A stretch of 64,000 bases of DNA from Desmodesmus armatus. Its lineage: Eukaryota; Chlorophyta; Chlorophyceae; Sphaeropleales; Scenedesmaceae. Below, piece after piece: positions 205 through 64,000 of this stretch. The translations under genes were made by a program, and so were the position numbers. The stretch's first letter is position 1; each line of letters opens with the position of its first letter. The DNA lies in NCBI GenBank assembly GCA_007449985.2, contig VIIQ02000089.1, positions 277,807 through 341,806 on the forward strand, in the 5' to 3' direction. Under the pieces are notes generated by a model. That model was given only the letters and a program-made list of their open reading frames with translations. It was not told where the DNA came from and did no database searches.

Positions 205-322
205 GCATCCAAGCATGTGACACGCACTATGACACCACTTGTGTACCAAACCTACTGCTCCCTTACACCCCCCCCCCCCCATTTTCCTTCCCTACGCCCT
301 CACCCCACCCCCACCCCTGCAG

Positions 323-850
323 GCGTACTGCCGCCTAGCCCAGCAGTATAGCCACACTGACAAGGTTTCCGCCTCGGAAAAGGAAGCGTCTCAAGCCAAC
401 AACCAACAGTCCCCCCCCCTCCCCCGTGCTGCGTCACACACCTACTGACCCTTCACTCCACCCTGGCTTCTCCCCCCCCCCCACCCCCCCCCCCACTGCA
501 GGCGTACCGCCGCTTGGCCCAGCAGTACCACCCAGACAAGGTCTCCGCCTTGGAAATCGAGGCGTCTGAAGCCAAGTTTAGGGACATTGCGTAGGCTTAC
601 GAAGTGTGCTTTGATGACGAAACACCTACTGACACTGCTGCGCAACCACGCATATCATATGTTGTACCCCCTGCCGCTGCCTCACACTTCACTCCCCCCC
701 CCCCCTATCCCCCCCCACCCCGCAGGCGTACCGCCGGTTGGCCCAGCAGTAACCACCCTGACAAGGTCTCCGCCTTGGTAAAGGAAGCGTCTGAAGGCAA
801 CAACCAACAGCCCCCCCCCCCCCCCCCCCGTGCTGCATCACACATGTACT
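323..850 (+). pseudogene. Three decayed tandem copies of the J-domain exon
   Basis: Copies of the 5' part of the downstream J-domain exon begin at about 323, 502 and 726. Each is preceded by a C-homopolymer and a CAG acceptor, exactly like the intact exon at 906. All three read AYR(R)LAQQ-like at first and then decay. The first has Ser in place of the His of the HPD motif and diverges after the Gln-Ala segment. The second keeps the HPD motif but has an in-frame TAG where the intact copy has Glu. The third has a stop at the HPD region. Spacing is about 180, 224 and 180 bases. These are intronic pseudo-exons created by tandem duplication of the acceptor plus exon start. Only the fourth copy is open to the end. 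Confidence 0.8.
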
Positions 851-905
851 GACCCTTTACCCCCCCCCCCCCCCCCGCTTCTCTCCCCCCACCCCCCACC
901 CACAG

Positions 906-1142
906 GCGTACCGCCGCTTGGCCCAGCAGTATCACCCCGACAAGGTGTCCGCCTCGGAAAAGGAAGCGTCTGAAGCCAAGTTCAGGGACATCGCCGAGGC
1001 CTACGAAGTGCTCTCTGACGACGAAAAGCGGGGCGCGTATGACAGGGGGGACGACCTGGAGCCGCAGATGGGGGGCGGGAACCCCTTCCAGCAGGGTGGC
1101 TTCCATCAGCAGGGCGGGTACACCTTCACGTTCAGGTTCTGA
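906..1142 (+). CDS. DNAJC3/P58IPK-like co-chaperone, last exon (J domain)
   Basis: This is the last exon of a gene that begins left of the window. A C-rich tract and CAG acceptor precede GCG TAC CGC CGC, which encodes AYRRLAQQ. The exon carries the J-domain helix II, the HPD motif (His codon at about 933), the helix III segment [17 protein letters not shown], then [16 protein letters not shown] and a Gly/Gln/Phe-rich tail ending FTFRF before TGA. The order J domain, then a short G-D-D-L-(E/D)P linker, then an aromatic tail, matches the C-terminus of DNAJC3/P58IPK, an ER-lumenal TPR co-chaperone that recruits BiP/Hsp70. The TPR part is not in the window, so the assignment rests on the tail. 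A different J protein is possible but less likely. Confidence 0.78.
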
Positions 1143-1572
1143 GCATCCATAAACCCTAAAGGGCCAGGTACATTTCGCTGCAGTGATGAGTCAGATGCGG
1201 TGCTGGCCCCGCTGCCAGCGCTGCTGGCATCAGCGCACCTGTGGACACATCTGCCATTGGGGCCATATGAGACGGATGGGACCATGGCCTTGTTTTCTTG
1301 GTCCTTTCTTGTTTGTAGTCTGCAGAAGTGACCCCGAGCTGTGGGCAGCTTGCTCAGCAGCTGCTGCTGATGGGTGTACTCCAACTTTTTTGAGAGAGCG
1401 ACGAATGTGCTGTGCTGTGCTGGGTCTTGCTTGGTAAGATAGGGTGCGGCAGTGTTGCTGCTGCGTGTGTGCGTTTTGGTCACCGTCGCAAACATCGTGA
1501 TCAACCTTGATTGTTGAGAGAGTGTGGATGAGTAGACATGGCATGTGGGGAAGGCTGGGCGCGGTGTGTGGC

Positions 1573-1577
1573 TGTAA
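1573..1577 (+). promoter_or_regulatory. Candidate poly(A) signal TGTAA for the DNAJC3-like gene
   Basis: TGTAA is the canonical chlamydomonadalean poly(A) signal. This one is the first on the + strand after the stop at 1142. Confidence 0.35.
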
Positions 1578-2020
1578 TGTGAAGTGGACATGGCTTTGAT
1601 GGTTGCTTGGTGCCATGCGCACTGATCAAACTGATTGCACTACACACTTGCACAGGCGCTCGTCGGCTGCTGATGCTGGTAGCAAATGGTACAGTGTTTG
1701 GAACAGAAGTCAGTGTTGCTGTCTCATACATGATATCTTTGTGTACAGCGCCCGTTCATCACATGCACTGGGGCGATGATAGCGATTGTATGAATGTACA
1801 TCTCTCAGCAGTCAAGGCACACAACAGGCTCAACCGTCATCAAAAGTGCATTACTCAGCACTCAGCAATTGACAGGCTGTACAAAACAGAGCCCCCAGCC
1901 ACAGACAGAGTGAGGGAAGTCAAACAGGGAACACAGCTTTCAGAGCGCAACACGGCAGCTCAACATGTACACACACACAGTCACTCACGCCCACTTCCCA
2001 ACAAGCGACGTCAAGCTGCC

Positions 2021-2150
2021 ATCTGCAGCTGCAAGCCGCCCTCTCCCCCCTCCAGCAACGCCCTGCGTGCCCCCCTCACAGCATCCCCCTCCTCCACCAG
2101 CAGCCTCCTTGGCCGTGCGCTGCAGGAACTGCTAAACCCTAGGGTCAACA
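2021..2150 (-). pseudogene. Second copy of the UTP12 3' end, including its stop region
   Basis: Bases 2021-2150 are nearly identical to 2228-2365, the last part of the UTP12 terminal exon. Both read, on the - strand, a conserved C-terminal tail rich in [10 protein letters not shown] followed by LQLQMAA. The downstream copy follows the true stop (2218-2220), so it is a 3'-UTR or intergenic duplicate. It diverges from the gene upstream of about 2140. Confidence 0.75.
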
Positions 2151-2217
2151 AAACCGCGGCGGAGCCAATCACACAGCTCAAACAGCCAGCAAGCTTCTGA
2201 GAGCACCCAGAACAGCT

Positions 2218-4193
2218 TCAAGCCGCCATCTGCAGCTGTAAACCGCCCTCTCCCCCCTCCAGCAACGCCCTGCGTGCCCCCCTCACAGCATCTCCCTCCT
2301 CCACACCAGCAGCCTCCTTGGCCGTGCGCTGCAGGAACCGCAGGGCTGCTATGTTGAACCCTAGGTGTCCCTTAGGCCCTGAACCGCGCCCCGCATCCGT
2401 TTGTGGAGGTCAACGAGGGTCTGGCGGGCTGAGGGGGTTGCTGTGAGTTGTGCATGGTGGAGACGCAGCAGGAGGGTGGCCACACGGCAGCTCAGCTCAA
2501 CCTGATCAAAGCAGCAGCAGCAGTAGCAGCAGCAGCAGCGGCGGCAGCAGGGAAATCAGCACATTTTTTGGTTTGTGGAGGGCATTGCTGTGAGTTGTGC
2601 GTGGTGGAGACGAAGCAGCAGGGTGGCCACACGGCAGCTCAGCTCAACCTGAAAACAAGCAGCAGCAGCAGCAGCAGCCAGGGGGGGGGGTTGGGCTGTC
2701 AGTTTGCGAAGAGAGAAGGGGGTTGCTGTGAGTTGTGCATGGTGCAGACGCAGCAGTAGGGTGGCCACACGGCAGCTCAGCTCAACCTGAAACAGCAGCA
2801 GCGGCGGTGGCGGCGGCGGCAGCGGGAGGAATCAGCAAATGTTTGGTTTGTGGAGGGAGTTGCTGTGAGTTGTGCGTGGTGGAGACGCAGCAGTAGGGTG
2901 GCCACACGACAGCTCAGCTCAACCTGTGAAAAAGGCAGCAGCAGCAGCAATTGCAGCAGCAGCAGAAGCAGCAGTGGCGGCAGCAGCAGCAGCAGCAGCT
3001 GCGGGTCAGCATACACTTAGGGTTGCGGAGGGGGTTGCTGTGAGTTGTGCGTGGTGGCCACGCGGCAGCTCAGCTCAACCTGTGTGTGGTTGGGAAGGGG
3101 AGGGAGCAGCAGCAGTAGCAGCAGCGGGGGCGACAGCAGGGGGGATCAGCACATGATTTGGGTTTCGGGGGCCCTCCGCACATCGGATGTGAGTTGTGCT
3201 TGGTGCAGACGCAGGAGCAGGGTGGCCACACGGCAGCTCAGCTCAACCTGGAAACAAGCAGCAGCAGCAGCAGCAGGAGGAGGAGGAGGAGGGATTCATA
3301 CACTCAGTGGACCATCATGATCAATCATTGGTCCTACAACATGGCGTGTGACAAGGAAGCCGCTGCATCACCCATATGCCGCTGCAAGACCCATGCATGC
3401 TGTACTGGACTGTTGCTTGCACATGTTCATTACCCACGTGCCGCACTCCCACAACACTCCCAACAGGGCTGCCCCCCCCCCCCCCCCAACTACACACACT
3501 CCATACGCGCAACACGCACCCCCCCTCTTCCCCCCCTCATGTACACAAATCCACCCACCTGTGTTCCCTGTGCCAGCCAGTCTCCCACCCAGCCCAGCAA
3601 TTTCAGTGCGTCAGCAAACGGCAGCAGCAGCGCCTGCTCCAAGTCGTTGGCCCTCACACACCCCACAACCCCCTTCCCCCCACCCACACAACACCCACAC
3701 ACATGACGCACACGCACAGACGCACGTGCACGCAAACACATACAGCACCCCCTCCAAACACCTCATCACTCACCCCCCCCCCCCCCCCAAAGGACCACCC
3801 ACCTGTGCCCCCTGTGCGAGCCAGTCTCCCACCCAGCCCATCAATTTCAGTGCATCAGCAAATGTCCAGCAGCAGCGCCTGTTCAAGGTCGTTCGCCGTC
3901 ACACCACCACAAACCCTCTCCCCTTCCTCCACCCCCTTTCCCAACCACCATCATCCCCCCCCCCCCCCCCCCCCACACACACACACATTCCACCCACCTG
4001 TGCCCCCTGTGCCAGCCAGTCTCCCACCCAGCCCATCAATTTCAGTGCATCAGCAAACGGCAGCAGCAGCAGCGCCTGTTCCAGGTCGTTGGCCCTCACA
4101 CCACCCACTGCCCTCAGCACATAGGCCTCAGCAGACAAGCCCAACATGAGGGGGTTGGCTGGGGGGCCTTGGGGGCAGGCTGGTTGGACGCCT

Positions 4194-4224
<31 letters not shown>

Positions 4225-7200
4225 GACGCGAAGCACAGTGCACGATTGGTGTACTGCAGTTTGATGCAAGAAGGGGTTTTTGTGTGTGTTGGGGAGTCAT
4301 GCTTGCAGCACAGTACTGCTGGCAGCGCAATACTGTACAGTAACTGCGGGGAACTGTTCACCTGGTAGAGGCCGATGTGCTCACGACAGTCTAGAGGTGC
4401 TGTCAATGAACTCCCCACTTTGCATATCCCTGTCGAACTGTGTTGGTGTGCTGATAGGACTGCTTGCATGTGACTTGCATGATCATAGTATGCTAGCTAC
4501 ACACGTACTCCACTATAGCAAACCCACGCACACACCTTTGCTGCCGCCAGCGCCGCCCTGTACTCCTGCTGCCTCTGCGCCCCCCCCCCCCACCCCACCC
4601 CCACCGCACACACACACTCTCCCCTCCCTTTGCTCCCGCCCCCTTCCCCCCCCCCCCCCCCACCCCAACCACCCATGCACCATGGTGGCACCACATACAC
4701 ACGCACACACCTTTGCTGCCGCCAGCGCCACCCTATACTCCTGCTGCTTCTCCGCCTCATGCCCCCCCCCCCCACACTCCCCTTTCCATTGCTCCCGCCC
4801 CCTTGCCCCACTCACCCTCCCCCCCCCCCCACCTCCCCACCCCCCACCCCCACCCACAGACACGTACCTTCGCTGCCGCCAGCGCCGCCCTGTACTCCTG
4901 CTGCTTCTCTGTCTCATGCCCCCCCCCCCCCACCTTCCACCCCCCACCGCACACAAAGCCACGCACCCTTTTCCTTTGCCCCCCCCCCCCCCAAACCCAC
5001 ACACCTTTGCAGCCGCCAGCGCCACCCTATACTCCTGCTGCTTCTCCGTCTCATGTCCCGCCACATCCAACGCATCCATAATGCTGTCAGCAGCAGACAC
5101 AGACTCAGCCGTACGCCGCCCAGCAGCAGCAGCAGCAGCAGCATCGTCCCCACCAGCAGCAGCAGCAGCGGCGGCATAGGTACCCCCTTGAGGCCCCAGG
5201 ATAAGGGCACCCTGCTGCCGCTGCTGCTGCTGTTCGAGGTCGGCTTCAAATAAGCTCTCCAGCCGCCGCTCTTTCTCTTCCTCCACAAAGAAGGGCTCGG
5301 AGGTGCGCTCCCAGCGGCGGATGCTGCGGTCACTCCCGCCTGCATGGCAATAAGTGTGACGTGCAACCAAAAGTTAACAAAACGTGGCATGGACGTGTGC
5401 GTGTCAACACGATCTCCCCCCCTCCTCTTCTTGTGTGTGACCACATAGTCTCCGCATCATGACACCGCAATTCATTCACGTCGCTACGGTGCTTCACCCA
5501 AAATGCATGTCACCCTGGTGCCCCCCCCCCCTTGCCCCCTCTCCACCCCCAACCACCACCAACACCCTGCACCCCTTTGTCACCTGTGACCACGTAGTCG
5601 CCGTATTGTGACACTGCCAGTGCCTGCACGTCACCGTGGTGCCCCTCCCAACACACAAGGACCTCCCCTGTCCCACACACCGTGTGTGGGGTGCCCCCCC
5701 CCTCCCCCCGCCCCCCCCCCCCACACACACACACCTGTGACTACGTAGTCACCGTATTGTGACACAGCCAGTGCCTGCACGTCACCGTGGTGTCCAGGCA
5801 GCTCCAGCAGCAACTCCCAGCGGTCCATGTCCCAATACTTCAACACCTTGTCACGACCAACACTGTTGTGTGTGTGTGGGGGGGGGGAGGGAGGGGAAAC
5901 ATGAGTGTGTGTGGTTATGTGATCAAGTGGGGATCAGCTAAATGCAGCAGCAGCAGCAGTTGTTGTTGCAGCAGCAGCAGCAGCAGCTCCCAGCGGTCGA
6001 TTTCCCATGTGACCTTGTCATGCCAACACTGGGTGGGTGGGTGGGTGGGTGGGGGGGGGGGAGAAACATGAGCGTGTATAATCATGTGCTCATGTCAAGG
6101 TGAACAATATACAGCAGCATCAACTTCAGCAGTTTGTTGAAAGCTCGCAGCGGTCCATGTCCCAATACTCCAACACCTTGTCACGACCAAACACTGTTTT
6201 ATTGGTGTGTGTGTGTGTGGCGGGGGGGGGGGGGCATGCGCGTGTGTGATAATGTGGTCATGTGGAGATATACCAGACGCAGCAGCAGCAGCAGCGGCCC
6301 AATGGCAGAGGCAGCATTGTGCGCGGGGGATGACACCGGATGTCTTGCACATACAAGCACAAACCCTGAGCAACGGCAGAAGTGTCACAGGAGTGCACCC
6401 AACCAACCCCACTGAGAGATAAAGGGTTGGAAATGGCTCCCTCTCCCTGGGGGGAGGCTTGTTCAGTTGCATGACGTCCAGTGGACGTTGCATGGTGGAA
6501 AAACATTGTGTAAGAGTCGTGGGAAGAGAGATCTTACCTGAAGGCGTAGTGTGTGTCCCGCACAAAGCCGACCGCCCGTACTGTGTCCTGGTGGGCAAAC
6601 AGGCTCTTGTGGCAGTCACCAAAGTCAAGGCCCCACACCTGACACACAGCACAGCACAGCACGACACAGCATGACACAGCACAGAGGCAGACGAGACAGT
6701 ACGTTGTGACGCCTTCCTTCCTCCAAGCAACGAAAGTTGTTTGTGTGCATGCGCCTTCACCCACACAAAAGGGAGGAACGTGCTGTCTGCGCTGCAGCGC
6801 AATAAACAATAGACGTTCTGTGTAACATCCAATTACTGATAGACAACACACAACACACCCCACCGACGATCCGTGAAGCACACCCCTGGGGTGTGCTGCG
6901 GCCCAGCCCCCAGCATGGCCAGTTACCAAGGGGCTGGCTACACGACCCACCCCATACACGGATTTCACCCAACTGACCACCACAGATTCAAAGCTGCACC
7001 AACGCTCATGAAATTTGGGGAGCAGCAATGGCCCGGGGCTCGAAACCCAACAGATACCCAGATTGGGCCTCGATCTCTTCCTGGGCATGGCTGTTGGGCA
7101 CTGGGACCCGGGACCTTGGTACCAATGCCCAACAGCCATGCCTAGGAAGAAGTCGAGGCGCAATCTAGGTCTCTGCTGCATCCCCACCTTGATGTTGTTG

Positions 7201-10200
7201 CCTGCTGATCAGCTGATAAACAGTGTCCCTTGCAATACCCACATTTTCCCCAAAAAAAACAAGGACAGCGCACATCACACACCACAGCCTGGCGGGTTTA
7301 GGGTTTAGGGTTTAGGCCTAAACCCTTTCACATCACCCACCTTGATGTTTTTGCCTGCTGATCCGCTGATGAGCAGTGTGCCTTGCAATGCCAACACTTA
7401 AGGATCTACGGATGCTACTGATATCAACCTTTGAGGACTGCAACCCTGCCCAGCACTAGCCACAAACAATGTAAACGACAGCACACTGCAGAAACCTGAC
7501 CAGTCTGCCTGCAAAAGAACAACCCAGGTGCAATTCACGTCACCCGGGCCCCCTTGTCATCACCCTAAAAGAATACGCGTCACCCACCTTGAAGTTTTTG
7601 CCTGCTGATCCGCTGATGAGCAGTGTCCCTTGCAATTCCAAACACTTATGGATCTACGGATACTACTGATACTAACCTTGATGGACTGAAACCCTGCCCA
7701 GCACTAGCCAGAACCAATGTGAACGACAGCACATACTACACAAACCTGACCAGTCTGCCTGCAAAAAACACCCCAGTGCAATCCACGTCACCCCCCGCCC
7801 CCCTTGTCATCACCTTGTCATAAACCACGTCGCCCACCTTGATGTTTTTGTCTGCTGATCCGCTGATGAGCAGTGCCCGCTGCAAATGCCAACAAGTGCA
7901 AAACCTATGTCTAGGACAGCACAGCACAGCACAGCACACACCACAGCAACCTGTCCAGTCTGCCTGGCAAACAAACACCTAGGCACAATCCATGTCACCC
8001 CGCCCACCTTGATGTTTTTGTCTGCTGACCCGCTGATGAGCAGTGTCGAGTCGCTGCTGATGTCAAGGGTGGTGGCAGGCAGCTTGTGGCCGTACAGACT
8101 CAGGAAGAACTTCAGGCTGCGATTAAAAAAGTGAGGGGGGAAGAGTGAGCGAGGGGGAAGAGTGAGTGAGGGAATGAGTGACGCCGGGCCGGCGAAACAG
8201 GAGAGAGAGGGAGGCAGCCTTCAGTGCAGCTTGCGATGACACAGACCAATATGGTAGATTAAGAATGCGCGGGTGGGCCATGCACGCCCCCACCCCAACC
8301 ACAACAACCACCCCCAGATATGCTTACCGCCATGGCCCCTCCTTACATTACACGCCCCCCCCCCCTGCATGCCCCATCCCCCCCAACCCCACACACCTGT
8401 CACAGTAGTAGACCCTGATGGTGTGGTCCAGCAGAGATGTGGGCCGTACCCCCCCCCCCCACCCCCACAACACACACTCGCATGTACTCCGGATGTTCAA
8501 CACATGCACAAACACACAGCCCCCCCCCCCTTCAAGCTCTGTGTGAGCCCCCCCCCCTCCCCCCCCCCCCCCCACCACACACACCTGTCGCAGAAGTAGA
8601 CCTTGATGGTATGGTCCAGCAAAGATGCTTGCCGTACCCCCCCCCCCTCCCGCCCCCACCAACACCCCCACATTCACACAGCCCCCCCCCCTCTCTCACA
8701 CACTGTCCCCCCCCCACACACACACACACACACCTGTCGCAGTAGTAGACCTTGATGGTGTGGTCCAGCAGTGAAGCTGCCAGCAGCTTGCCGTCAGGTG
8801 ACACGCGCACACACAGCACGTCATCAGCCATATCCAACTGACGCTCAAGCCTGAAACCAAACCGCTGAACCAACATGCCTGCAGCCACAGTAGATAACAG
8901 GGGGGGGGAAGAAGGGGGGAAGGGAGAGTATTAGACTACATTAACCGCGGGAGTGGTGTGATTTTCTTTCTGTTCAAAATAATCCCAACTGACGCTCAAG
9001 CCTGGAATCCCGACCGCTGCAGCAGCATGTCTGCACACAAGGATGAAAAGAGAGGGGGACAATTGTGATGTACATTTAATATGATAGTGAGCCACAGGAA
9101 GACACAAAGCGAGGGGGAAACAGCTCCTCCCGCCCTGTCCTGTCCCTCCAACCTCCCCTGAAGCTCAACCCTGACCCATGCATCATCTCAATCGCATTGT
9201 GCAGTGAGACTCACCCGGTTCTGCTGTTGCGTCTTGCTGGTGCTTCTTGTTCCGCTTCTTGGCTGGCTGCTGTGAGGGGTCATCCTCTTCCTCCTCCTGC
9301 TGCTGCTGCTGCTGCTCTGTGGTGATGGTCCAGGTCCAAAACTTGATTGTCTTGTCTGCACGGGCGTGGACGAGGGCGGACAGGGGCAGGAGCAACACAC
9401 AGGGTAGCAGACACATATGTTTGCTATAGGCACTTTGCGTGGTTTTTGTGTGTGCGTGGGGCAGGGGGGGGGGGGTCAAAGCACATGTTGCTAACAGTGT
9501 ACCTCAATTGCACCCCATTGCCGACAGAAACAAGCCTTGTCAGCAGAATCGTCCTCAGACGCATGTTGTGGTTGCACACAAGGCCAAGGTCGAGATTCTG
9601 GGTGCTGAAATTATGCTGCTGTGCCATGCTGGTTTGTTTTTGGACGTGGAAGGGGAGGGGGGCTGCCTGTGCGTACCTGCTGAGCCTGTCACAAAGCCAC
9701 TCTTGTCAGGCAGCAGAGCCAGGGACCACACCGCCCCGCTGTGGGCCTGCTCCGTATGAACCACACTGCAGGCACCCACATCAATCAGCTGGATGGCGCC
9801 CTCCTGCAACCAAATGCAAGGCCAGACAGCGCAACACAGTGGGATCTGGATTTGGATCTTGGATCTGCAATGTAATGGTGCACTCTTGCAGACTGGGGGG
9901 GGGGGACTCTGCCGGCAGGCGATCCGTAGAGGCGCTGTTGTTCCGAATTTCTATTGTTTGAGTTACTATATTATTATTTGCTGAATACAATTCATTGATA
10001 ATGCTGAAATTTATTGAGATTATGTTTTTTTAATCCAAAAACTACGGGCTCGCTGAAAATATAACTTTAGAGACACAAATTCGAATGGGCGCAGAGGGAG
10101 GGGCAACACAAGGCCGGGGCAGCACTTTGCAAAGTGACATCTGAAACATAGTGACTCAATAAGTGTGACGTTCAAAGCTGACGCCGTTCGTTGCCACAAC

Positions 10201-14132: not shown

Positions 14133-14166
<34 letters not shown>

Positions 14167-16312: not shown

Positions 16313-16398
<86 letters not shown>

Positions 16399-27545: not shown

Positions 27546-27625
27546 GATCACACAGCGCTGTCCAACACACCACCCATCAGACCACCCACCACCACCAGAC
27601 TCCACCCACACCTCCCGTGATACCC

Positions 27626-37824: not shown

Positions 37825-37856
<32 letters not shown>

Positions 37857-44189: not shown

Positions 44190-44222
<33 letters not shown>

Positions 44223-50984: not shown

Positions 50985-51323
50985 GGCACCTATGGCACTG
51001 TCGTGCTGCTGTCGAAATGCCCAGAGCAAACACGTCTAACTATACACGAAGGGAAAGTGCTGTAGTAATCTTGACTTGTTTTGGAAATTCGTCTTCCTGC
51101 AGAGGAGCAAGAAGAAGAACATAACATCTGGATCGCGATCTGATCAACTGACGTTTGACCCAGGCATCCCAGGCATTCCTCGTTATCTTCCAAGCTTTGC
51201 AGGAATTTATATTATCACTCACAAGATTTCCCCTCTTGTCTACTGCTTATCTAATATGCTGACAGTTTCACCACGACACAGCTTTTGAAAAGCTTTGTTG
51301 TTGCACCTCCTGCCGCTGCTGCC
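50985..51323. promoter_or_regulatory. Presumed bidirectional promoter, hydrolase / COG5
   Basis: These 339 bases separate the ATG of the hydrolase (-, 50984) from the ATG of COG5 (+, 51324), so both promoters and 5' UTRs must lie here or overlap. No TATA box or other element was recognised. Confidence 0.45.
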
Positions 51324-54300: not shown

Positions 54301-57300
54301 ATTCCCCAGGAGGTGCATGCGGTGCTGTCCCATAACGCTCGAGCTGATGTACTAGTTGCTGCACTAACCTGCTGGTGTGATGTGCCATTGCTGTACTGAC
54401 CATGTGCCGTTGCTGCTTTGCTTATCCCAATGCTCTCTCATGTGACACAACAGGAGGTGGATGCGGTGCTGTCCCAACACCTGCATGAGCTGGAGCGCAG
54501 CTTCAAGCAGTCACTGGACAGCCGCCACCTCAGCAGCATGGCAGCAGCAGCGGCAGCAACGGCGGCTGGTGGCGGCAGCAATGCGGCAGCAGCAGCAGCC
54601 GGCGGCGGAGGGCCTGGGGGTGCGAGAGGCCTGACGATCCCTGCACCTGGTGCAGCAGGGTCTTGGCAGGTGGGTGTGCCGTGTTTTGGGGGTTCAAGTA
54701 AAAGTGGTGGTGGCAGCAATGGCGGCTGGGGGCGGCAGCAATGGGGCAGCAGCTGACAGTTGTTGTGGTGGTGGGTAGGGGGGTAGGAGGGGCCTGACGA
54801 TCCCCGCACCTGGTGCAGGAGGTTCTTGGCAGGTGAGTGTGCATATGTCGTGTGCATCTTTGTATTGGAAGCAGTGGTGGCAGCAACGGCGGCTGGCGGC
54901 GTCAGCAGTATGGCAGCAGCAGCCGGCGGCGGCGGGCCTGGGGGTGCGAGGGGCCTGACGATCCCTGCACCCGGCGCAGCAGGGTCTTGGCAGGTGGGTG
55001 TGCCGTGTTTTGGTGGTTCCAGTGGGAGTGGTGGTGGCAGCAGGGGCGGCTGGGGGCGGCAGCAGTGCGACAGCAATGCGGCAGCAGCAGCCGCCGTGGT
55101 GGGCCTGGGGGTGCGAGGGGCCTGACGATCCCTGCAACTGGTGCAGCAGGGTCTTGGCAGGTGGGTTTGCCTTGTTTTGGGGGTTCAAGTGGGAGTGGTG
55201 GTGGCAGCAGCGGCGGCTGGGGGCAGCAGCAGTGCAGCAGCAGCAGCCGGCGGCGGTGGGCCTGGGGGCGAGGGGCCTGACAATACACGCACCTGGGGCA
55301 GCAGGGTCTTGGCAGGTGGGTGCGCCGTGTTTTGGGGGTTTGAAGTGGGGGTGGTGGTGGCAGCAATGGCGGCTGGGGGCGGCAGCAATGGGGCAGCAAC
55401 TTACAGTCAAGGTGTTGGTGGTGGTGGTGGATAGGGGGTGCCAGGGGGATTTCTGCACCTGGCGCAGCAGGGTGCTGGCAAGTGGGTGTGCCGTATGTAT
55501 GCTGCGTTTATTGGAAGCCGTGGTGGCAGGAATGGCGGCTGGTGGCGGCAGCAGTGGGGCAGCAACTGACAGTTGTGGTGGTGGTGGTGGTGGGTAGGGG
55601 CGTAGGAGGGGTCTCACCGTGAGGCACATTGGGCGCAGGGTTGACCGGCTGCGCCAGGGCAGGCAGGTCGACTGGGGGCGGCAGCAAGGGGGGCAGCAAC
55701 GGACAGATGAGGTGGTGGTGGTGGTGGTGGGTAGGGGGGTAGGAGGGGCCTGAGGATTTCCGCACCTGGGGCAGGAGGGTCCTGGGAAGTGGGTGTGCCG
55801 TATGTACGCTGCGTTTACTGGAAGCTGTGGTGGCAGCAATGGTGGCTGGTGGCGGCAGCAGCAGGCGGCAGCGGGTCTGGGGGCGCGGGGGGCCTGAGGA
55901 TTTCTGCACCTGGGGCAGCAGGGTTTTGGCAGGTGGGTGTGTGGGGTGTGTGTGGTTGAGAGTGGCAGCAGGGCTGTACGCATCCAAGTCATCAGTCTTA
56001 TGCTTCGGGCCTGTGTGTGTGTATGCAGGACAAGCTGTGGAGCTGCCTGCGTGGGTCATGTGATGCCCCTGCTTGCATCCTGCACAGTACTTTGTAGTCC
56101 CGATGTCTCTGCAGGACAAGGTGCCTTGTTGTGTTGACCAAGGCTGCTCTGTCCGCAGCTGAGTCAATAGGGGGGCACTATCACTGCCTAGCCAATTGTT
56201 GGAACAAGTATTGTTGGCCGGCTTTGGGGAGGGTTTGCAGTAGATAATCCTACATTGAATCGTTTCTACAGTTTCCATCACTAGTTTCCTTTCTAGTTGG
56301 CTGCTGCTTCAAAAGAGGGGCATGGTCGACTGACTTGCTCTGATTGTTGCTGGTCTCTGTATGTATATGTACACAGGACAAGCTGTGGAGCTGCCTGCGT
56401 GGGTCCTGTGATGCGCTCGCCACGTCGGCCCTGTCTGTGTGGCACCTGCAACGTGTGGTGGCCAAGAAGCGAGACCCCATCAGTCACATACTGTTCCTGG
56501 ACGTGGTGTGCCCACCGGGACCCCCCTCCTCACAGAGCGCTTCTGGTGAGAGGGGTGGAGACACCGTTGCAAGGCTGGTTGCTGTTGCTAGTTAGCGCTG
56601 GTGCCCTTGTACGCCCCCCCCCCCCCCCCCACGCCGCCCTCCTACTGCACCTCCCCCCAACCCACACACTTTCCCAACCAAGCTGCCTTTCTTTTACTCA
56701 CGTGGTTCCTTTACCCACTGCCCCTACCCCCCCCTCCCCAAACACACACACACACACACACACACCATGTCCCTCTTGCCCCTTTCTTCCCCGCAGGGAC
56801 GAGGCCCTGCGTGTGTTGTTAGAGGTGTTTGCTGCTGCTGCTCGCCCTTCCAAGGGTGGCTTTGTGCGCGATGCGCTGACGTCCTCCTACCCCCGCCTGG
56901 TGACACTACTGGAGTCGACACTCAACAGGATCGTCACAGACAGCAGGATCAAGGTGTGTATGGTCTCTTATGCATCGGATGGTGCTGCTTGTGGGGGTCG
57001 TGTGGCAGCTGTGTCAGGGGGGGGGGGGGAGGAAGGGGGGCGGGGCACCCATGCCCCCACATACACACCACATGTTCTTATCCTAGGCTGGTGACACTAC
57101 TGGAGTCCACACTCGACAGGATCGTCACAGACAGCAGGATCAAGGAAAGGCCCTTGTCCCCTTGCTGCTTGGGTATATGTTGGTGCTTGTGTGTCAGCAT
57201 CAGACCAGCATACTTTGGGGTGGCACTACTATGCAAGAGAGTGTTGCTGCTGTTGAGAGGGGGGCATAGCATGTGGCGCACCTACCACGCCCCACATGCA

Positions 57301-60300
57301 CACCTGCACATTCCCGCATCGCTAGCTTGGTGGCACTGCTGGAACCCACACTCAACAGGATTGTCACAGACAACAGGATCAATGTGCGCACCAATCTCTG
57401 GCACTGTCGCTATCATCATGGCTGTTGTCAGGATGGGGGCACAGGGTGTAGTCTACTGGTGTGGTAGCTGCGTGATTTTGACCACCCGGGGGGGGGGGGG
57501 CGTCAGAGAGTGTGCCGCCCGTACTGCCTTGCCACATTGAGGGTCCAATGGCCGCGAACAAGCTATGGCTGCTGCTGTTGCTGCTGCCGCTGCTGCTGCC
57601 GCTGCTGCCGCTGCTGCTGCCGCTGCTGCTGCTGCCGCTGCTGCTGCTGCCGCTGCTGCTGCTGCTGCTGCTGCCGCTGCTGCTGCCGCTGCTGCTGCAG
57701 GGTGTGGTGCCTGCTGTGCTGCCGGAGCAGCTGCCGCTGCTGCTGGATGCATCTGCACCCTTCAGGGACGCCTACCTGTCGGGAGGGCTGGTGCGGCTGC
57801 AGGTGAGGCACAGCAAGGGGCAGTCACAGTCAGACAGTCCAGTCAGTGAAGCAAAACCCTGCTCAAAGGGGGTTTTGCTCCCCCTATGAAGCAGGAGCAA
57901 AACAGTGTCTGTTCTGTTTCATCAAACATTTGCCCAGCAAAGCTATCCGCAGACAGGCTGAATTGCATGGGTCATGTCAGCAGGCAGCTATCTTCAATCA
58001 GTCCACTCTGCTTTAGGCCAGAGTGAAGGAAGGCACAAGGTCAGACAAAATCAAGCCACCAGACAATGCCGGATGCCGGGGGTATGGGGTGTGAGGTATC
58101 ATCCCCCGACAGCCTGGGTCCCTTTGTTGAGGCCCTCCAGCCTAGCGTGACAAGTACTGCTGATGTGTGTGCTGTAGACACAGGGAGTGCATCCAGCCAA
58201 TGCATAAACCATCCAAGCATGTGACATTCCGAAGTTGGGTATAAGTATAACTTCCTGTGTCTACACACTTCCTTTGTGTAGACACAGGAAGTGTGTTTGG
58301 CATGGATGATGCATGTGTAGCTAGCACCCTATGAACATGCAACACGCAAGCAATGTGTGTGTACATGTGTCTGTAGGAGGCGGTGGGCACGGCCTTTCCT
58401 GGCAGTAGCAGAGCACTGCCCAGCCCTGCTGATGTGCAGAAGTGTATCGGGTGAGTTGGGGGGGGGAGACAGGGGTGTTAGGGGCGGGGGTGGAGGGTAG
58501 GAGTGTGTGTGTGTGTGGAGGGGGGGCAATGGTGGATGGGTGGGGTTGGTGCTGCTTAGCCCTGCTGATGTGCAGAAGTGTATCTGGTAAGATTGGGGAG
58601 TGCTGGTGGTGGTTGCTGTCGTGGCAGCGGGCTGGTGGGGTTGCCTGTGCTGTGGTGAACAGCCCCCCCCCCCCCTCTCTGGCAATAGGATGTCATATCC
58701 ATGCATGATTCAAGTGCACTGAGTAAGGGTGAATTGGTCCTGCCGTGCATGCCTGTGACATGTCAGTCCAGGTTGACCATCGTGTGAATCAGACAGCATA
58801 TAGTGCAGGTGTCCACTTGCTGCCGATGACCAGGCCTCTGTGTGAAGTTTCAAACACCCCTCCTCGATTTGAAATCGATTTGAAATCGAGGAGGGGTGTT
58901 TGAAACTTCACACAGAAGTTTGAAGTTCGAAGTTTGACTTTGATGGAGAGGAGCAGAACCAGCATGCATGTGACTGCAACTAGCAATTAATTGCATAACA
59001 TCCACCAACCCACGCAGTAACGCATGGTGGCAAATGCACTGGTGGATTTCGAGTAATGTGGGACAGTGACAAAGTTGGTGCAACCAGCAGTGGCCCACAG
59101 TGGTTTAACTTGGGTCACAAGTCACAAGTGGACTTCATGCACCCAGCATGAAGTTCATGCTGGGTGCAGGTTGATGCATGAGAAGCTGAAAGCGGCTGGA
59201 TCATGTGGCTACCTGGCTGCCCTGGTGGCACCCGCCTACCTGTTTCCCGCCCCTGCTTCCTGCTACCCCCTCCCTCCCTTCTCTCATCCTCAACCCTACC
59301 ATACAAGCGGCTCTTGTCCACCTCCGACTCACCCCCCCACCCCACCCCACCCCCCTGGCCGTGTACCCCCCCCCCACACACCACCACCAACACCACCAAC
59401 ACCACTACACCTTGCCCCCCCCCCCACACAGGTTGATGCATGAGGAGCTGAAAGCTGCTGGGTCAAGTGGCTACCTTCCATCAGATGCCTCCCACCCCCC
59501 CTGGGGAATTTGTACCCCTGCTTTCTGCCACCCTCCGCCCTCCTCCCCACTGGAGCGGGGGCTCAATGTTGTCCACTCCCTGAACCCTCTCCCCCTCTCC
59601 CCACAAACAATCCGCTCTGCCCCCCCCCCCCCCTTGGGCCCCTCATCCCACCCCACACAGTTTGATGCATGAGGAGCTGAAAGCTGCTGGATCAAGTGGC
59701 TACCTGGCTGCTCTGGTGGGAGGCAGTGTGGGGAAGGCACTGCGGCTACTGGCAGAGAAGGCAGAGTACATGGCTGCGGCAGGGCCAGAACTGCGACAGG
59801 TGTGTGAGGGGTATGTGTATGTGGTTAGGGGGGGGGGCAGTTTAATCGCTGGGATGGGGTGTCATTGTGGTGTTTGTGGGGGAGGAGGGGGGACTGCGTG
59901 TCGCGCACAAGTTGATGGGGGTGGCAGTGGTTGGTTATTGGCCGGGGGAGGGGGGGGGGGAGCAGGGGAATGGGGAGGGGGGGGGAGGAGTGTGCCACAC
60001 CTGCAGGTCCACAGCTGTCGGAGTCTGACTGGTCTTTTGTGAGAGCGTTCCTACCCAGTGGCCACGGCACGCAGCAATTTGAATGAATAAGGAAGCTGGG
60101 TTCAAAATAAGCGCGCAGGACTTGGGACACGTGGCAACGCGATAAGGCCCCAGTGCATGGTTCGGTTGGGCACGAGGTCACAAGAGTCCCTCTGGCGGGC
60201 CGAGAAAACACCCAAAACAAACCCTCCTAGCTGGGACCCAGCAGCAACAGCTTTTGTGTGTTGGTTTTGTTTCCTGCTGCCCGTTGTTGCTGCAGGTGTC

Positions 60301-61520
60301 ATTGGGTCCTGCTGCTGGTGGTGGTGCGTCTCAGGCTCAGCTCAGGAACATCGCCCTCTGCTCACAGTTACAGGTGCGCCAACCAGTCAGTGATAAGACG
60401 GTGTGGCCGCCAACCCTTGAATACATGTTAGGCGATGCCGAGCGTCTCTCATCGGGATGAGGCTTGACCTTGGGCCCCCCGCAGCCTCGGCTGTTGTGTG
60501 TGTGGCCAGCTGGTGGGGGTCTGCCCCCTTGTCATCTGCAAAAACCCTTCAATACATGCATGTTTGTGTCTGTTACCTGTGTGTTGACAAAATGATGCTT
60601 TGATGTGCTTTGTGTTGATGTGCTTTGTGTTGACAAAATGATGCTTTGATGTAATTGTGTTGATGTGCTTTGTGTTGACAAAATGATGCTTTGATGTGCT
60701 TTGTGTTGATGTGCTTTGTGTTGACAAAATGATGCTTTGATGTGCTTTGTGTTTGTTGATGTTTGATGTTGATGTGCTGTGCTGTGTTGTGCTGCTGCAC
60801 GTGCAGGAGGTGCACAGGTCTCTATCCACGCTGCTGCCCCGCCTGCCTGGCCCTGCTGCTGCTGCACTGGCCCCATACCTCGAGGCACTGCACAACACAG
60901 CCATAGACATAGGTGGGAGGGGGGGGGGGCTGATGTTGTTTTGTTGGATGTTTGCGCGCCTGGATTGTCCCTTGGTTTTGTTCTTTTCGGCACTTTTGCA
61001 GCAAGCAAGTTTCATGCGTATGTGTGTACAGAAGGCTACGGTGTCGTGCCGGCCCTGAAGATGCCCCAGGCTCTTGTATGATCTTGCATAGCAGGACAGA
61101 AGCAGCACCACAGGCTAGGGCGGCAACGTGTGTTGTGATGCAGCGGTCAATATGGCGGGAAACTGTGGTTGTGTGATCCTCTGGACCTTGCGTTGCCCTG
61201 CTGTCCTGTCGGCCGTGGAGTTGCCCCCATGACGTAGCGCAGTGGGCACATACAGCAGCACGGGCTGAGGGCGACAACATGTGTTGAAGTGGTCCCTGAA
61301 AAACAAGTTATTCTTGGGTGGTAAAATTATTCAACTCAGTGAGTTTTGCGTTGCCCTGCTGTTACACTGTCCTGTTGGCCCTGCAGTTGCCCCCATCTTC
61401 AAGGCTGCCATGGATGTGTTTGAAGGTCACATCACAGCCATGCACCAGCAGAGCTGGGGACCAGCAGCAGCAGCAGCAGCTGGAGGAGGAGGTAGTGGAG
61501 GGGGTGCAGCTGGTGAGGAT

Positions 61521-61559
<39 letters not shown>

Positions 61560-63399
61560 GGCGGCGGTGCCAATTGGGTTTACTGAGACCAGCGGCTATG
61601 TCACTGAGCTGGCAAATGCCATCGCTGTCTTCAGGTGGGTGATGCATTCCTTACTTTGTTTGGGTTTTTGGGTCGGACGCGGGGGGGGGGGGGAGAGTAT
61701 GTTAAGCACATGTTGAACACAATCATGTTGCGTCCCCCACCCCCCATGTCCTGCGTCTGCCTGGACCCAACCAGCACAACACTGTGGCTCATCTCCTTTG
61801 CGCCCCCCCCCCTTCCGCACACACTCTTTGGTTCCCCAAATTTCTCTTGCCGCCACTGCGCTGTTGGCCGACCTGCAACCTGTACTGCCCATCCTCGCTC
61901 TCTTGTCTCGCTTACTCACACCTCTCTCTTGCCGTCAACATCTTCTCTTACGAACACAGGTCTGAGTACCTGTCCAAGTTCATCCCTCCCCCCAGCCCCA
62001 GCGTCCCTTCAGTATGCAGCAGCCTATTTGAGCGCTCAGCTGGGCGGCTGCTGATGCTGTGGGTGCGGGCGGCCTGCCTGCTGCCTTGCCCCCCCCCCTC
62101 CCCACCCATGTCACAAGCATAAACACTTGCCCCCGCTGCTGCTGCTGCTGCTGCTGACAATCCTGTTGCCGACCCCCTCCCCCCCCCCTTCACACAGGTC
62201 TGAGTACCTGTCCAAGTTCATCCCTCCCCCCAGCCCCAGCGTCCCTTCAGTATGCAGCAGTCTGGTTGAGCGGTCAGCTGGGCGGCTGTTGATGCTGTGG
62301 GTGCGGGCGGCCTGCCTGCTGCGGCCCCTGGGTGAGGGGGCAAGCTTCAGCTGGCTAAGGACCTGGGTGAGCTGCAGATGGTTGTGGGCAGGGCCTGTTC
62401 CCCCTGGACGCACTGGGGCCTGCACACAGGTGGTGTATCCGGGGGTGGGGGGGGTGAAGGGGGGGGGGGGGGTTGACACTGGTGTGTGTTGAGGGGGGGG
62501 GCAAGCTTCAGCTGGCTGAGGATTTGGGTGAGCTGCAGATGGTTGTGGGGCAGGGCCTGTTCCCCTGGACGCACTGGGGCCTGCACACGGGTGGGTGGGT
62601 TGTTGGGGGGGGGGGGGTTTGCACGTATGTGTGTGGTGTGTGGGGGGGGGGGAGGGGGGCAAGTTGCAGCTGGCCAAGGACCTAGGGGAGCAGCAAATGG
62701 TTGTGGGGCAGGCCCCCTGGGTGGGGCCCGCACACCGGTGGGTGTGGATGTTGTGTTGGGTTTTTTGGGGGGGGGGGGGTGGGGTGGGGGGTGGGGGGGG
62801 GGGGAGGGGGGCAAGCTTCAGCTGGCCAAGGATTTGGGTGAGCTGCAGATGGTTGTGGGGCAGGGCCCACTGGACGCACTGGGGCCCGCACTCTGGTGGG
62901 TGTGGATGTATGTGTGTGTTGGGCCGCACACCGGGGCGCAGACAGCGAGTGTTTGTTTGGAGCACGGCCCCTATGTGTGTGTGTGTTCCCCGGGGGGCCT
63001 TGTGGATGTGGTGTGTTAGGGGGGGGGGGGGAGGCTGCAGATGGTGGCCTGTTCCAGATGGTGGTGCCACTCCGAACAGTGCTGTTCAGTCGGACTGCAT
63101 GTCCGCTGTGTACTGCGATCTGCTGTGTGTTGACAGAGAGACTGCATGTGTGCACATGCATGCTGGCTAGTATGTTTGTGCCTTCGCGCACTCCGTGGGC
63201 TGCTGTTGACTCAAACTTCATGTGTGCTGTGGTGTGCTGTGCTGTGGTGTGCTGTGGTGTGCTGTGTTGTGCTGTGCTGTGCGTGCAGGTGTCTGCGTGC
63301 GTTCCGTGCGCTGCTGTTCACTGAGGATGCAGCTCTGTCCGGTGCCTCCTGCCTACTGGACATGCCACCTGGGCTGGTGCTGCTGCACTGCTTCTCAAG
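51324..63399 (+). CDS. COG5: COG5, subunit of the conserved oligomeric Golgi tethering complex
   Basis: COG5 belongs to COG lobe B, which tethers vesicles in retrograde intra-Golgi traffic. Exons: 51324-51730, 52352-52432, 52632-52814, 53734-53823, 54454-54669, 56377-56545, 56797-56953, 57701-57802, 58377-58450, 59661-59799, 60296-60373, 60807-60912, 61387-61634, from 62198 (3' boundary ambiguous, among four copies), 63289-63399. A final exon may run past the edge (from about 63766, acceptor not seen). Matches to animal COG5: [174 protein letters not shown]. Gly/Ala and Gln runs are lineage-specific. One base is missing in exon 1 (before LEQALSTHV); phase also slips at exons 6/7, in 13 and near 62340. 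I chose the ATG just upstream of the conserved N-terminus. Confidence 0.92.
51836..51950 (-). repeat. SINE-like dispersed repeat, copy 4
   Basis: GGCTGGCCACATAC next to a C-homopolymer, then GCCGCGGGCC, AGCCTCGCCAG, and the segment CCCAGGAGGTGCTGATG shared with the copy near 13305. It lies in COG5 intron 1. Confidence 0.45.
52484..53135 (+). repeat. Echoes on both sides of COG5 exon 3
   Basis: An acceptor-side echo ([16 protein letters not shown]) is at about 52484-52550, upstream of exon 3. Donor-side echoes ([21 protein letters not shown] plus GTGTGGGTGTG) are at about 52905-52970 and, shorter, 53098-53135, downstream. Confidence 0.8.
53415..53672 (+). repeat. Three echoes of the COG5 exon 4 start
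   Basis: The exon start [14 protein letters not shown] recurs, diverged, near 53420, 53536 ([13 protein letters not shown]) and 53632 ([11 protein letters not shown]). Each is preceded by a C-homopolymer, upstream of the real start at 53734. Confidence 0.8.
54195..54350 (+). repeat. Two echoes of the COG5 exon 5 start
   Basis: Copies of CAG|GAGGTGGATGCGGTGCTG (EVDAVLSQH) begin near 54201 and 54310, upstream of the real start at 54454. Confidence 0.8.
54790..55940 (+). repeat. Array of 7-8 echoes of the COG5 exon 5 3' end
   Basis: The exon end ([20 protein letters not shown] plus donor CAG|GTGGGTGTG) recurs near 54833, 54995, 55165, 55318, 55488, 55795 and 55938, with a weaker member near 55640. 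Unit length is about 140-170 bases and includes the Gly/Ala-coding stretch. Most copies keep a usable donor and some an open frame. Confidence 0.85.
56015..56075 (+). repeat. Echo of the COG5 exon 6 start
   Basis: Acceptor plus [13 protein letters not shown] is repeated upstream of exon 6 (56377). A shorter fragment lies near 56114. Confidence 0.8.
57085..57385 (+). repeat. Two echoes of the COG5 exon 7 3' end
   Basis: [20 protein letters not shown] is repeated at about 57087-57143 and, more diverged ([19 protein letters not shown]), at about 57326-57383, downstream of exon 7. Confidence 0.85.
57568..57700 (+). repeat. CTG/CCG trinucleotide tract at the COG5 exon 8 acceptor
   Basis: About 130 bases of mixed CTG and CCG units run into CAG|GGTGTGGTG. 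The tract occupies the polypyrimidine position of intron 7. It is open in all three forward frames, so part could be exonic. Confidence 0.8.
58250..58292. repeat. Perfect hairpin with 18-base arms
   Basis: Arms 58250-58267 and 58275-58292 (ACTTCCTGTGTCTACACA and its complement) with a 7-base loop. A related GTAGACACAGG-type fragment lies near 58170. It is in COG5 intron 8. Confidence 0.75.
58838..58915. repeat. Perfect inverted repeat with 33-base arms
   Basis: Arms 58838-58870 and 58883-58915 are perfect reverse complements around a 12-base loop. The core is GTGTGAAGTTTCAAACACCC. A partial third copy (GAAGTTTGAAGTTCGAAGTT) follows at about 58915. It is in COG5 intron 9 and has the geometry of a hairpin RNA precursor or a young MITE. 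Confidence 0.85.
59160..59480 (+). repeat. Two echoes of the COG5 exon 10 start
   Basis: [19 protein letters not shown] with its acceptor recurs near 59168 and 59431, upstream of the real start at 59661. The copy at 59168 ([19 protein letters not shown]) is open over its repeated length. Confidence 0.85.
60418..60540 (+). repeat. SINE-like dispersed repeat, copy 5
   Basis: TTAGGCG, TCTCTCATCGGGATGAGGCT, TTGGGCCCCCCGCAG, TGTGTGTGGCCAGC and TGGTGGGGGTCTGCCCCCTT, collinear with the - strand of the copy at 13180-13360. In COG5 intron 11. Confidence 0.5.
60580..60770 (+). repeat. Minisatellite in COG5 intron 11
   Basis: About four units built from TGTGTTGACAAAATGATGCT and TTGATGTGCTTTGTGTTGAT alternate with a period near 45-60 bases and end just before the exon 12 acceptor. 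Confidence 0.8.
61962..62090 (+). repeat. Echo of the COG5 exon starting at 62198
   Basis: [20 protein letters not shown] through [17 protein letters not shown] is repeated almost identically upstream of the copy starting at 62198. The first copy ends in LPCPPP, the second in RPLGEG, which matches COG5, so the second is taken as the true exon. Confidence 0.8.
62341..62900 (+). repeat. Four tandem copies of the COG5 [17 protein letters not shown] segment
   Basis: Copies begin near 62341, 62505, 62660 and 62814 and are separated by G-homopolymers. The last ends [11 protein letters not shown] with a donor in the right phase for exon 63289-63399. The first is joined to the preceding exon part. 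Which copy or copies enter the mRNA cannot be decided from the sequence. Confidence 0.8.
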
Positions 63400-64000
63400 G
63401 TGGGTGGGAGAGAATGCGGCCGGGAGGGGAGGGGGGTGGAGTTGGGGTTGGGGGTGGGGGGGCGTTGATAGGGGGAAGGGGTTGTGGTGGACGTGTGATT
63501 TTTTGTGGGGCTGGTGCCTCCTGCTGCTGTACATGCCACCAGGGCATGTGGCACAGGGCTGTTTCTGTGCAGTACTGCTTGGGGTGCAGTACTGCTCGGG
63601 GTGCAGACCCCAGAGGGGGTGAGGGGCGACAGATGGGATAGGCTGCTTACATGGTGGTAGGGGTGTGTGTATGTAAGGGGGGCGGGTGCCTGCTGTGGCA
63701 CACACAAACCCCTCGCCCACAACACCCATGCCCACTCATACCCCCCCCCCACCTCCGGCGCACCCGACGATATACACCACGGGTTGCCCAGCAGCATCCA
63801 AAACCTTACGAGAGCTCAGGCCTGTCACCCGCCCCGCTCAACCGCTGGGCTGGACCAGCACAGCAACCTGAAACCCCTTCCACACACTCCCGCCCAGTTG
63901 CTTTGCAGTGCACTCAGAGTCCTTCTGTTGACGGTGCAACCTTCAAGGTTGCCGTGCACCCCCTGCCCCACATCAGGCCCGCAGCTATTTTGCCTTCTCA
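63400..64000 (+). other. COG5 last intron and possible terminal exon
   Basis: A partial echo of exon 63289-63399 is near 63510-63560. Downstream, about 63766-63950 contains RAPDDIHHGLPSS-like and ALRVLLLTVQ-like reading that could be the terminal COG5 exon (animal COG5 has RAPAEL near here), but no AG acceptor stands at the expected place and the frame is uncertain. Confidence 0.3.

What the first reader, a model, noticed from the sequence alone, without database searches (positions are those of the whole stretch)
323..63560. Introns built from tandem echoes of the adjacent exon edge
In seven of the nine genes, most exons carry extra decaying copies of one edge. Copies of the 3' end plus donor sit downstream, and copies of the acceptor plus 5' end sit upstream. 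At least 25 exons show it, some on both sides (UTP12 exon 16, COG5 exons 3 and 5). Unit boundaries almost always coincide with C/G homopolymers or CTG tracts. The regularity suggests a local, recurring duplication process (slippage or template switching at G-rich tracts) that copies splice sites and generates candidate alternative exons. I know of no described system of this kind; the generality is inference from one window.
Basis: partly seen in the sequence, partly recalled or inferred. Interest (0 to 1): 0.9.

Follow-up and report, generated by a model that had tools for sequence, protein, structure and literature searches.

The report
Introns stuffed with exon-edge copies
In this green alga many introns hold tandem, decaying copies of one end of the neighbouring exon together with its splice site, a pattern that seems to enlarge introns and that I found no earlier description of.

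Summary
The window is the end of a contig in a 116-Mb green-algal assembly whose closest protein matches are Scenedesmaceae. In three genes with hand-checked GT-AG models (UTP12/WDR3, COG5, last exon of a DnaJ gene), 13 of 31 exon 3' ends recur downstream and 10 of 32 exon 5' ends recur upstream (one of the ten is only a CTG tract). The three wrong-side hits are in short exons. Unrelated introns give nothing comparable. Direct local repeats outnumber inverted ones 121 to 1. In UTP12 and COG5, 24 of 26 repeat families span a splice border and none copies a whole exon; random placement predicts about 8-13 touching an exon. Copies carry one splice site, average 90% identity, and 31 of 34 indels break frame, so they are not working exons. 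Six of nine chaperonin genes, picked without regard to repeats, show the same, and a Tetradesmus obliquus COG5 gene model contains four in-frame copies of one exon end. Best reading: recurrent local tandem duplication (offsets mostly 80-400 bp) anchored at exon-intron borders, tolerated because a one-sided copy is invisible to splicing. G-tracts accompany donor-side but not acceptor-side copies. Why borders are preferred over intron interiors is unexplained; that is the interesting part.

The parts
253..905 (+). DnaJ gene: three upstream copies (near 323, 502, 726) of acceptor plus 5' part of the last exon
906..1141 (+). authentic last exon of the DnaJ-domain gene
   Evidence: PF00226 E 8.7e-16
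2011..2341 (-). UTP12 last exon: duplicated stretch of its 3' part, offset 207; does not span a splice border
2250..2501 (-). UTP12 exon 18 (5' part as modelled here; 2250 is not a splice border)
   Evidence: tblastn P0001, P0002, P0009
2428..3291 (-). five upstream copies of the 5' end of UTP12 exon 18, four of them with the acceptor
3519..4108 (-). two downstream copies of 3' end plus donor of UTP12 exon 17 (3998-4191)
4519..5062 (-). three downstream copies of 3' end plus donor of UTP12 exon 16 (5005-5339)
5581..6294 (-). UTP12 exon 15 (5735-5862): copies of both edges, one downstream and two upstream
7179..8066 (-). four downstream copies of 3' end plus donor of UTP12 exon 13 (8008-8116); no G7+ runs in this intron
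8356..8778 (-). two downstream copies of 3' end plus donor of UTP12 exon 12 (8734-8850)
8834..9058 (-). upstream copy of the 5' edge of UTP12 exon 12, 77% identity
   Evidence: below the score cut
10349..11742 (-). nine downstream copies of UTP12 exon 9 (11656-11790) 3' end, in a higher-order pattern of period about 389
11764..11998 (-). upstream copy of the 5' edge of UTP12 exon 9
   Evidence: score 49
12029..12853 (-). downstream copies of UTP12 exon 8 (12698-12943) 3' end plus donor
15344..15950 (-). three downstream copies of UTP12 exon 3 (15895-16037) 3' end plus donor
52483..53129 (+). COG5 exon 3 (52632-52814): copies of both edges
53373..53773 (+). at least one upstream copy of COG5 exon 4 (53734-53823) 5' end
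54185..55957 (+). COG5 exon 5 (54454-54669): two upstream 5'-edge copies and a downstream array of seven 3'-edge copies (score >=40)
56014..56414 (+). upstream copy of COG5 exon 6 (56377-56545) 5' end
56895..57386 (+). two downstream copies of COG5 exon 7 (56797-56953) 3' end; one has lost its GT
58416..58598 (+). downstream copy of COG5 exon 9 (58377-58450) 3' end plus donor
59167..59719 (+). two upstream copies of COG5 exon 10 (59661-59799) 5' end plus acceptor
61188..61396 (+). upstream copy touching the 5' edge of COG5 exon 13 (61387-61634), only 10 exonic bases
61954..62915 (+). COG5 exon 14 (62198-62429): one upstream copy of the 5' edge and three downstream copies of the 3' edge
21842..23230 (-). 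minus-strand unnamed gene: array of acceptor plus 5' exon end (gene not modelled)
46956..47263 (-). minus-strand unnamed gene: copies of exon 3' end plus donor (gene not modelled)

Best explanation
Introns of this alga grow by recurrent local tandem duplication of DNA segments (offsets mostly 80-400 bp) that straddle one exon-intron border. Each event puts a copy of the exon's edge, its splice site and some adjoining intron inside the intron. The copy has only one splice site, so splicing can still use the outer, authentic site and the mRNA is unchanged; selection does not see it and it decays, while the array can be re-duplicated into higher-order repeats. SHOWN: tandem direct copies, edge anchoring, correct side, neutral-looking decay, longer introns where copies occur, occurrence elsewhere in the genome. 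INFERRED: that the physical event is replication slippage or template switching (helped by G-tracts next to donors), that the authentic site alone is spliced, and that selection removes duplications of whole exons. UNEXPLAINED: why borders are so strongly preferred over intron interiors.
For: Direct vs inverted local pairs 121:1. Edge-specific and side-specific copies against a 2,050-comparison null. Of 26 families in two genes, 24 span a splice border, 1 lies at the 3' part of the last exon, 1 is intron-only, 0 contain a whole exon. Overlap with an exon by >=10 bp: 25 observed, 13.1 expected when whole families are placed at random without copying whole exons (P 2.9e-7); for the closest pair of each family alone, 21 observed, 11.7 expected (P 1.9e-4). 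With introns collapsed to their estimated pre-array length, 10.8-10.9 expected (P for 25: 3.9e-9; for 21: 5.5e-5). Classes expected of 26 random events: 13.3 intron-only, 9.5 edge, 1.9 whole exon, 1.2 inside exon. Decay: 31 of 34 indels not multiples of 3; in arrays with two or more echoes, sites where every echo differs from the authentic exon fall on codon positions 1/2/3 as 1/2/11, sites where only some differ as 47/30/59. Echo-to-authentic identity 0.897 (58 copies), echo-to-echo 0.866 (86 pairs). Introns with echoes median 859 bp (17), without 403 bp (14), p 8e-4. Generality: 13 of 15 ten-kb stretches elsewhere have local direct repeats, 125 direct vs 5 inverted pairs within 3 kb; in 9 chaperonin genes 29 direct pairs vs 0 inverted, 9 of 16 families overlapping one of 45 HMM-matched exons and 11 within 45 nt, in 6 of the 9 genes. 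Tetradesmus COG5 model: four copies of a 26-residue exon end, the first three each followed by the same 11 residues beginning with V, period 37 residues. Unit size: 84 of 90 families at offset 80-400 although up to 3,000 was searched.
Against: Random placement plus selection alone does not predict the near-absence of intron-only families, so the border preference needs a cause I have not shown. G-tracts are enriched at donor-side junctions (23 of 40) but acceptor-side junctions show no tract enrichment (4 of 18), and two donor-side arrays lack G7+ runs. Detection favours pairs in which one arm is a constrained exon; I bounded this (65 of 86 echo-echo pairs still score >=50) but did not remove it. 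5 of 16 families in the chaperonin sample and one in COG5 (60577-60753) are not near a recognised exon, 3 of the 9 chaperonin genes have no repeat family at all, and some random stretches (L008, L019) carry repeats that look unrelated to exons. Splice dinucleotides are kept slightly more often than expected (GT 37 of 38, AG 15 of 16), which could hint at function. No RNA evidence was available.
Confidence: 0.72

Rival explanations
1. No targeting: tandem duplications arise anywhere, selection removes those that change the mRNA, and intron-only pairs are missed because both arms decay and introns are partly low-complexity. Edge copies stand out only because one arm is a conserved exon.
For: Echo-authentic identity exceeds echo-echo identity (0.897 vs 0.866); dust masks 20-21% of intron bases against 8-13% of exon bases.
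Against: 65 of 86 echo-echo pairs remain detectable at score >=50, so most intron-only duplications of like age should have been seen; 13.3 of 26 expected, 1 observed.
Confidence: 0.2
2. The echoes are functional: decoy or alternative splice sites, or regulated partial exons kept by selection.
For: GT kept in 37 of 38 and AG in 15 of 16 border-reaching copies, where decay at the observed identity predicts 30.2 and 13.3.
Against: 31 of 34 indels break the frame and echo changes spread over all codon positions; no family copies a whole exon. With the lower divergence of codon positions 1 and 2 (5-6%) as neutral rate, the splice-site excess is weak.
Confidence: 0.1
3. RNA-templated or break-repair copying: pre-mRNA or nearby DNA is used as template during repair at exon borders, rather than replication slippage.
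For: Border preference would follow naturally if splicing intermediates or border-specific breaks were involved; most copies run on from exon into unspliced intron or the reverse.
Against: Direct orientation (121:1) and head-to-tail arrays with higher-order periods are what plain tandem duplication gives; no direct evidence for an RNA step.
Confidence: 0.08
4. Assembly artefact or collapsed haplotypes.
For: The assembly seems to have small indel errors, for example frame breaks in COG5 exons 1 and 14 (read); 5 of 58 copies are 97% or more identical to the authentic edge.
Against: Mean echo-to-authentic identity is 0.897 and echo-to-echo 0.866, with private changes in the copies; the same architecture recurs in separate contigs and in a Tetradesmus gene model.
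Confidence: 0.02

Closest known systems
Internal gene duplication / tandem exon duplication (Gao and Lynch 2009, seen only as cited in PMC4974935)
   Same: Short tandem duplications inside genes that include exon and intron sequence
   Different: As I recall them, those duplicate whole exons or coding segments and alter the transcript; here only one exon edge is copied and the coding sequence appears untouched
[quoted passage not shown] potato RdRp case, PMC4974935, passages read)
   Same: Tandem duplication that copies splice signals
   Different: It makes a new intron from exonic sequence (AGGT model) or from a duplicated intron-exon segment (potato); here existing introns grow, and each copied edge keeps its own splice site inside the intron
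Minisatellite or satellite arrays with higher-order repeats
   Same: Head-to-tail copies, unequal growth, higher-order period (UTP12 intron 9)
   Different: The unit is a piece of a conserved exon with its splice site, a different unit for each exon
Introner elements (recalled, no paper read)
   Same: Lineage-specific source of intron sequence
   Different: Introners are dispersed and similar between introns; here copies match only their own exon (non-cognate maximum score 42)

Membership tests
Tandem exon duplication | A complete extra exon with both acceptor and donor | tested here: not met
   0 of 26 families contain a whole exon; the three wrong-side edge hits are in exons of 74-135 nt
Intron gain by AGGT tandem duplication (Rogers) | A new intron runs from the first copied GT to the second copied AG, so the copied exon sequence lies between two new splice sites | tested here: not met
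   Copies of an upstream exon's end are followed by GT in 37 of 38 border-reaching cases, inside an intron whose own borders fit the algal homologues
Introner elements | Similar sequence shared among many unrelated introns | tested here: not met
   2,050 non-cognate edge-intron comparisons, maximum score 42; exon-derived parts only
Tandem repeat array (minisatellite-like) | Head-to-tail direct copies | tested here: met
   121 direct vs 1 inverted within 5 kb; TRF periods 127, 256, 389 in UTP12 intron 9
Internal gene duplication | Local duplication inside a transcription unit | tested here: met
   26 families within or touching UTP12 and COG5
Internal gene duplication | Changes exon number or coding sequence | tested here: inconclusive
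   The exons taken as authentic align to Scenedesmus and Tetradesmus proteins in order, but no RNA was available to show what is spliced

The most novel reading that the evidence does not exclude
Exon-intron borders are themselves hot spots for tandem duplication in Scenedesmaceae: an event started at the border copies outward from the exon on either side, and this is a main way their introns lengthen. If so, a mutational process reads gene structure at the DNA or pre-mRNA level.
Probability: 0.35. Interest if true: 0.88.

Novelty: new variant of a known kind. Interest (0 to 1): 0.72.

Why it matters
It offers a visible, apparently recurrent route by which introns get longer, and each copy is a molecular fossil of its exon edge. 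It might explain part of the long introns reported for Tetradesmus obliquus (mean 462 bp against 230-302 bp in the other algae of Table 1 of PMC5966456, passage seen). It also warns annotators: echoes can be called as exons, as seems to have happened in a Tetradesmus COG5 model. If the border preference survives a genome-wide count, it points to a mutational process tied to gene architecture.

Tried and rejected
A home-made gene finder drifted in self-training and was dropped. A 147-bp (nucleosome-size) unit was considered: 18 of 90 families lie at 140-160 bp, but only 2 of the 16 chaperonin families, so I make no claim. C-tracts at acceptor-side junctions were tested and not found. G-tract asymmetry (G7+ 62 first half vs 16 second; C7+ 8 vs 27) is partly produced by the arrays themselves; in echo-free introns it holds for G6+ (10 vs 2) but not for C6+ (8 vs 10). 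A first placement simulation stopped on a script error and counted rejected draws wrongly; it was replaced. Haematococcus was my first guess for the organism and was wrong. A protein search for pyruvate kinase with too strict a cut-off returned nothing, so locus L015 was only read, not tested. A BLASTP self-comparison printed no internal repeats; the Tetradesmus repeat was read by eye there and confirmed by a word count, 1 of 175 proteins. A Scenedesmus acutus paper (PMC8780407, passages) mentions tandem gene fragments, not exon edges. Literature searches found no description of exon-edge echoes; they cover only the held open-access library.
Full report
What the window is. It is the last 64 kb of contig C85 of a 115.8-Mb, 831-contig assembly. 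UTP12 matches Scenedesmus sp. NREL 46B-D3 best (63% identity over 80% of the query) and Chlamydomonas reinhardtii at 51%; COG5 matches Tetradesmus obliquus at 68-69% and Scenedesmus sp. PABB004 at 62%. The taxonomy entry places Scenedesmus in Sphaeropleales, Scenedesmaceae. The organism itself is not named to me.

Is the observation there? Yes. A self-BLASTN of the window gives 126 direct and 9 inverted pairs; within 5 kb, 121 direct and 1 inverted. To test the exon claim I modelled three genes. Exons of UTP12 and COG5 were placed by tblastn with related algal proteins, with GT and AG candidates at the borders chosen by hand. Pfam confirms DnaJ and COG5; WDR3 (UTP12) is the best match for the third, although it stays below its cut-off on the 129-residue piece given. 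I then aligned the 80-nt edges of each exon with its own introns and, as control, with the other introns. 13 of 31 donor-side edges and 11 of 32 acceptor-side edges have copies on the expected side (42 and 22 copies at score 40 or more). The wrong side gives 1 of 32 and 2 of 31, all in exons of 74-135 nt. The 2,050 control comparisons reach 42 at most, while cognate scores reach 155. At score 50 or more, 19 of 34 exons have an echo and four have echoes at both edges; one of the 19, COG5 exon 8, is only a CTG tract.

Anatomy. Between UTP12 exons 17 and 18 the 1,496-bp intron holds two copies of exon 17's end plus donor, then five copies of exon 18's beginning, four of them with the acceptor. 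UTP12 intron 9 (1,852 bp) holds nine copies of exon 9's end; after the first, at offset 246, they follow in a 119-136-bp ladder with a higher-order period near 389 bp. Introns with echoes have median 859 bp (n=17), those without 403 bp (n=14; p 8e-4).

Are edges really preferred? In the two fully modelled genes I found 26 repeat families. 24 overlap an exon by at least 15 bp and 25 by at least 10 bp. Checked against the borders themselves, 24 span a splice border, one lies at the 3' part of the last UTP12 exon, one is a 46-bp minisatellite inside an intron, and none contains a whole exon. Random placement that forbids copying whole exons expects 13.1 families to touch an exon (P 2.9e-7); using only the closest pair of each family, 21 observed against 11.7 (P 1.9e-4). 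Placing single units gives 8.0 expected in present introns and 10.8 if introns are first shrunk to their estimated length before the arrays grew; even the smaller count of 21 is then unlikely (5.5e-5). Of 26 random events 13.3 should be intron-only, 1.9 should copy a whole exon and 1.2 lie inside one. A detection bias exists because a conserved exon arm is easier to recognise, but copies still recognise each other: 65 of 86 echo-echo pairs score 50 or more, and dust masks only 20-21% of intron bases.

What happens to the copies? They decay. Identity to the authentic edge runs from 0.76 to 0.99, median 0.90 (58 copies). 31 of 34 indels are not multiples of three. In arrays with two or more echoes, sites at which all echoes differ from the authentic exon fall on codon positions 1, 2, 3 as 1, 2, 11, the mark of constraint on the authentic exon; sites at which only some echoes differ fall as 47, 30, 59. 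Pooled over copies, differences per site are 6.3%, 5.0% and 14.9% at positions 1, 2, 3; this pooled count repeats shared changes, and I do not read it as coding constraint on echoes, though it leans that way. GT is kept in 37 of 38 and AG in 15 of 16 copies that reach the border (38 of 40 and 16 of 18 copies examined), somewhat above the 30.2 and 13.3 expected at the observed identity; the one lost AG looks like a one-base alignment shift. I regard this as suggestive only.

Tracts. G7+ runs occur in 11 of 13 introns with donor-side echoes and 5 of 18 others. UTP12 intron 13 and COG5 intron 5 carry four and six donor-side copies without any G7+ run. Tracts therefore go with donor-side copies but are not required.

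Elsewhere in the genome. I asked for twenty 10-kb stretches by position; four did not exist and one gave 922 bases. Of the fifteen full ones, 13 contain local direct repeats, covering up to 26%, against 8-50% in the window; in total 125 direct and 5 inverted pairs within 3 kb. Not all of these are exon edges; L008 and L019 look like other repeats. As a sample not chosen for repeats I took chaperonin (PF00118) genes: 50 matches on ten contigs, nine stretches with 45 of the matches fetched. They give 29 direct and 0 inverted pairs and 16 families; 9 overlap an HMM-matched exon, 2 more lie within 45 nt and 5 do not; 6 of 9 genes have at least one overlapping family and 3 have no family. The HMM does not mark every exon, so the 5 may or may not be at exons. 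In a second species, one T. obliquus COG5 model (P0121) carries four copies of a 26-residue exon end, the first three followed by the same 11 residues starting with valine, as a read-through donor would give; another T. obliquus record (P0123) has one copy. This is a gene model, not RNA evidence, and the two records may differ only in annotation.

How it works, as I see it. Recurrent tandem duplication of segments (84 of 90 families at offsets of 80-400 bp) that cross one border. The copy lacks a partner splice site, the outer authentic site is still used, and the copy drifts. That accounts for the side rule, the lack of whole-exon copies (few of which were expected anyway) and the decay. It does not account for the lack of intron-only families. 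Either borders are where these events start, or detection still favours edges more than I estimated. Slippage or template switching at G-rich DNA is the likeliest molecular step on the donor side; it is inference.

Known or new. Closest are internal gene duplication and intron gain by tandem duplication (PMC4974935, passages seen; PMC3488318, passages seen). The cases I know change gene structure; here gene structure seems kept and introns swell. My searches of the open-access library found no description. In the Haematococcus papers I saw passages only; one (PMC7617258) mentions short repeats organised in tandem, and none of the passages shown mentions exon edges.

Noticed in passing
window 62198-62429 and 51325-51730: COG5 exons 14 and 1 contain small frame breaks, possibly homopolymer errors of the assembly; a later echo of exon 14 keeps the frame where the authentic copy does not (read).
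   Followed up: partly
window 49606-50009: A 34-bp minisatellite of about 12 near-identical copies (95% match), within a minus-strand gene territory.
   Followed up: no
window 60577-60753: A 46-bp minisatellite of about 3.8 copies inside a COG5 intron, the only repeat family there not touching an exon.
   Followed up: no
window 2011-2341: Part of the end of the UTP12 coding region is itself duplicated downstream.
   Followed up: partly
L005 6552-7406: A gene of the aconitase family has an array of several copies of an exon start preceded by a CTG tract (read from ORFs).
   Followed up: no
L015: A pyruvate kinase gene with several local repeats, closest offsets 93-209 bp; at least three overlap exon edges by reading.
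   Followed up: partly
P0121, residues from 364 on (four copies, period 37): Tetradesmus obliquus COG5 gene model with four tandem copies of one exon end, apparently echoes annotated as exon.
   Followed up: yes
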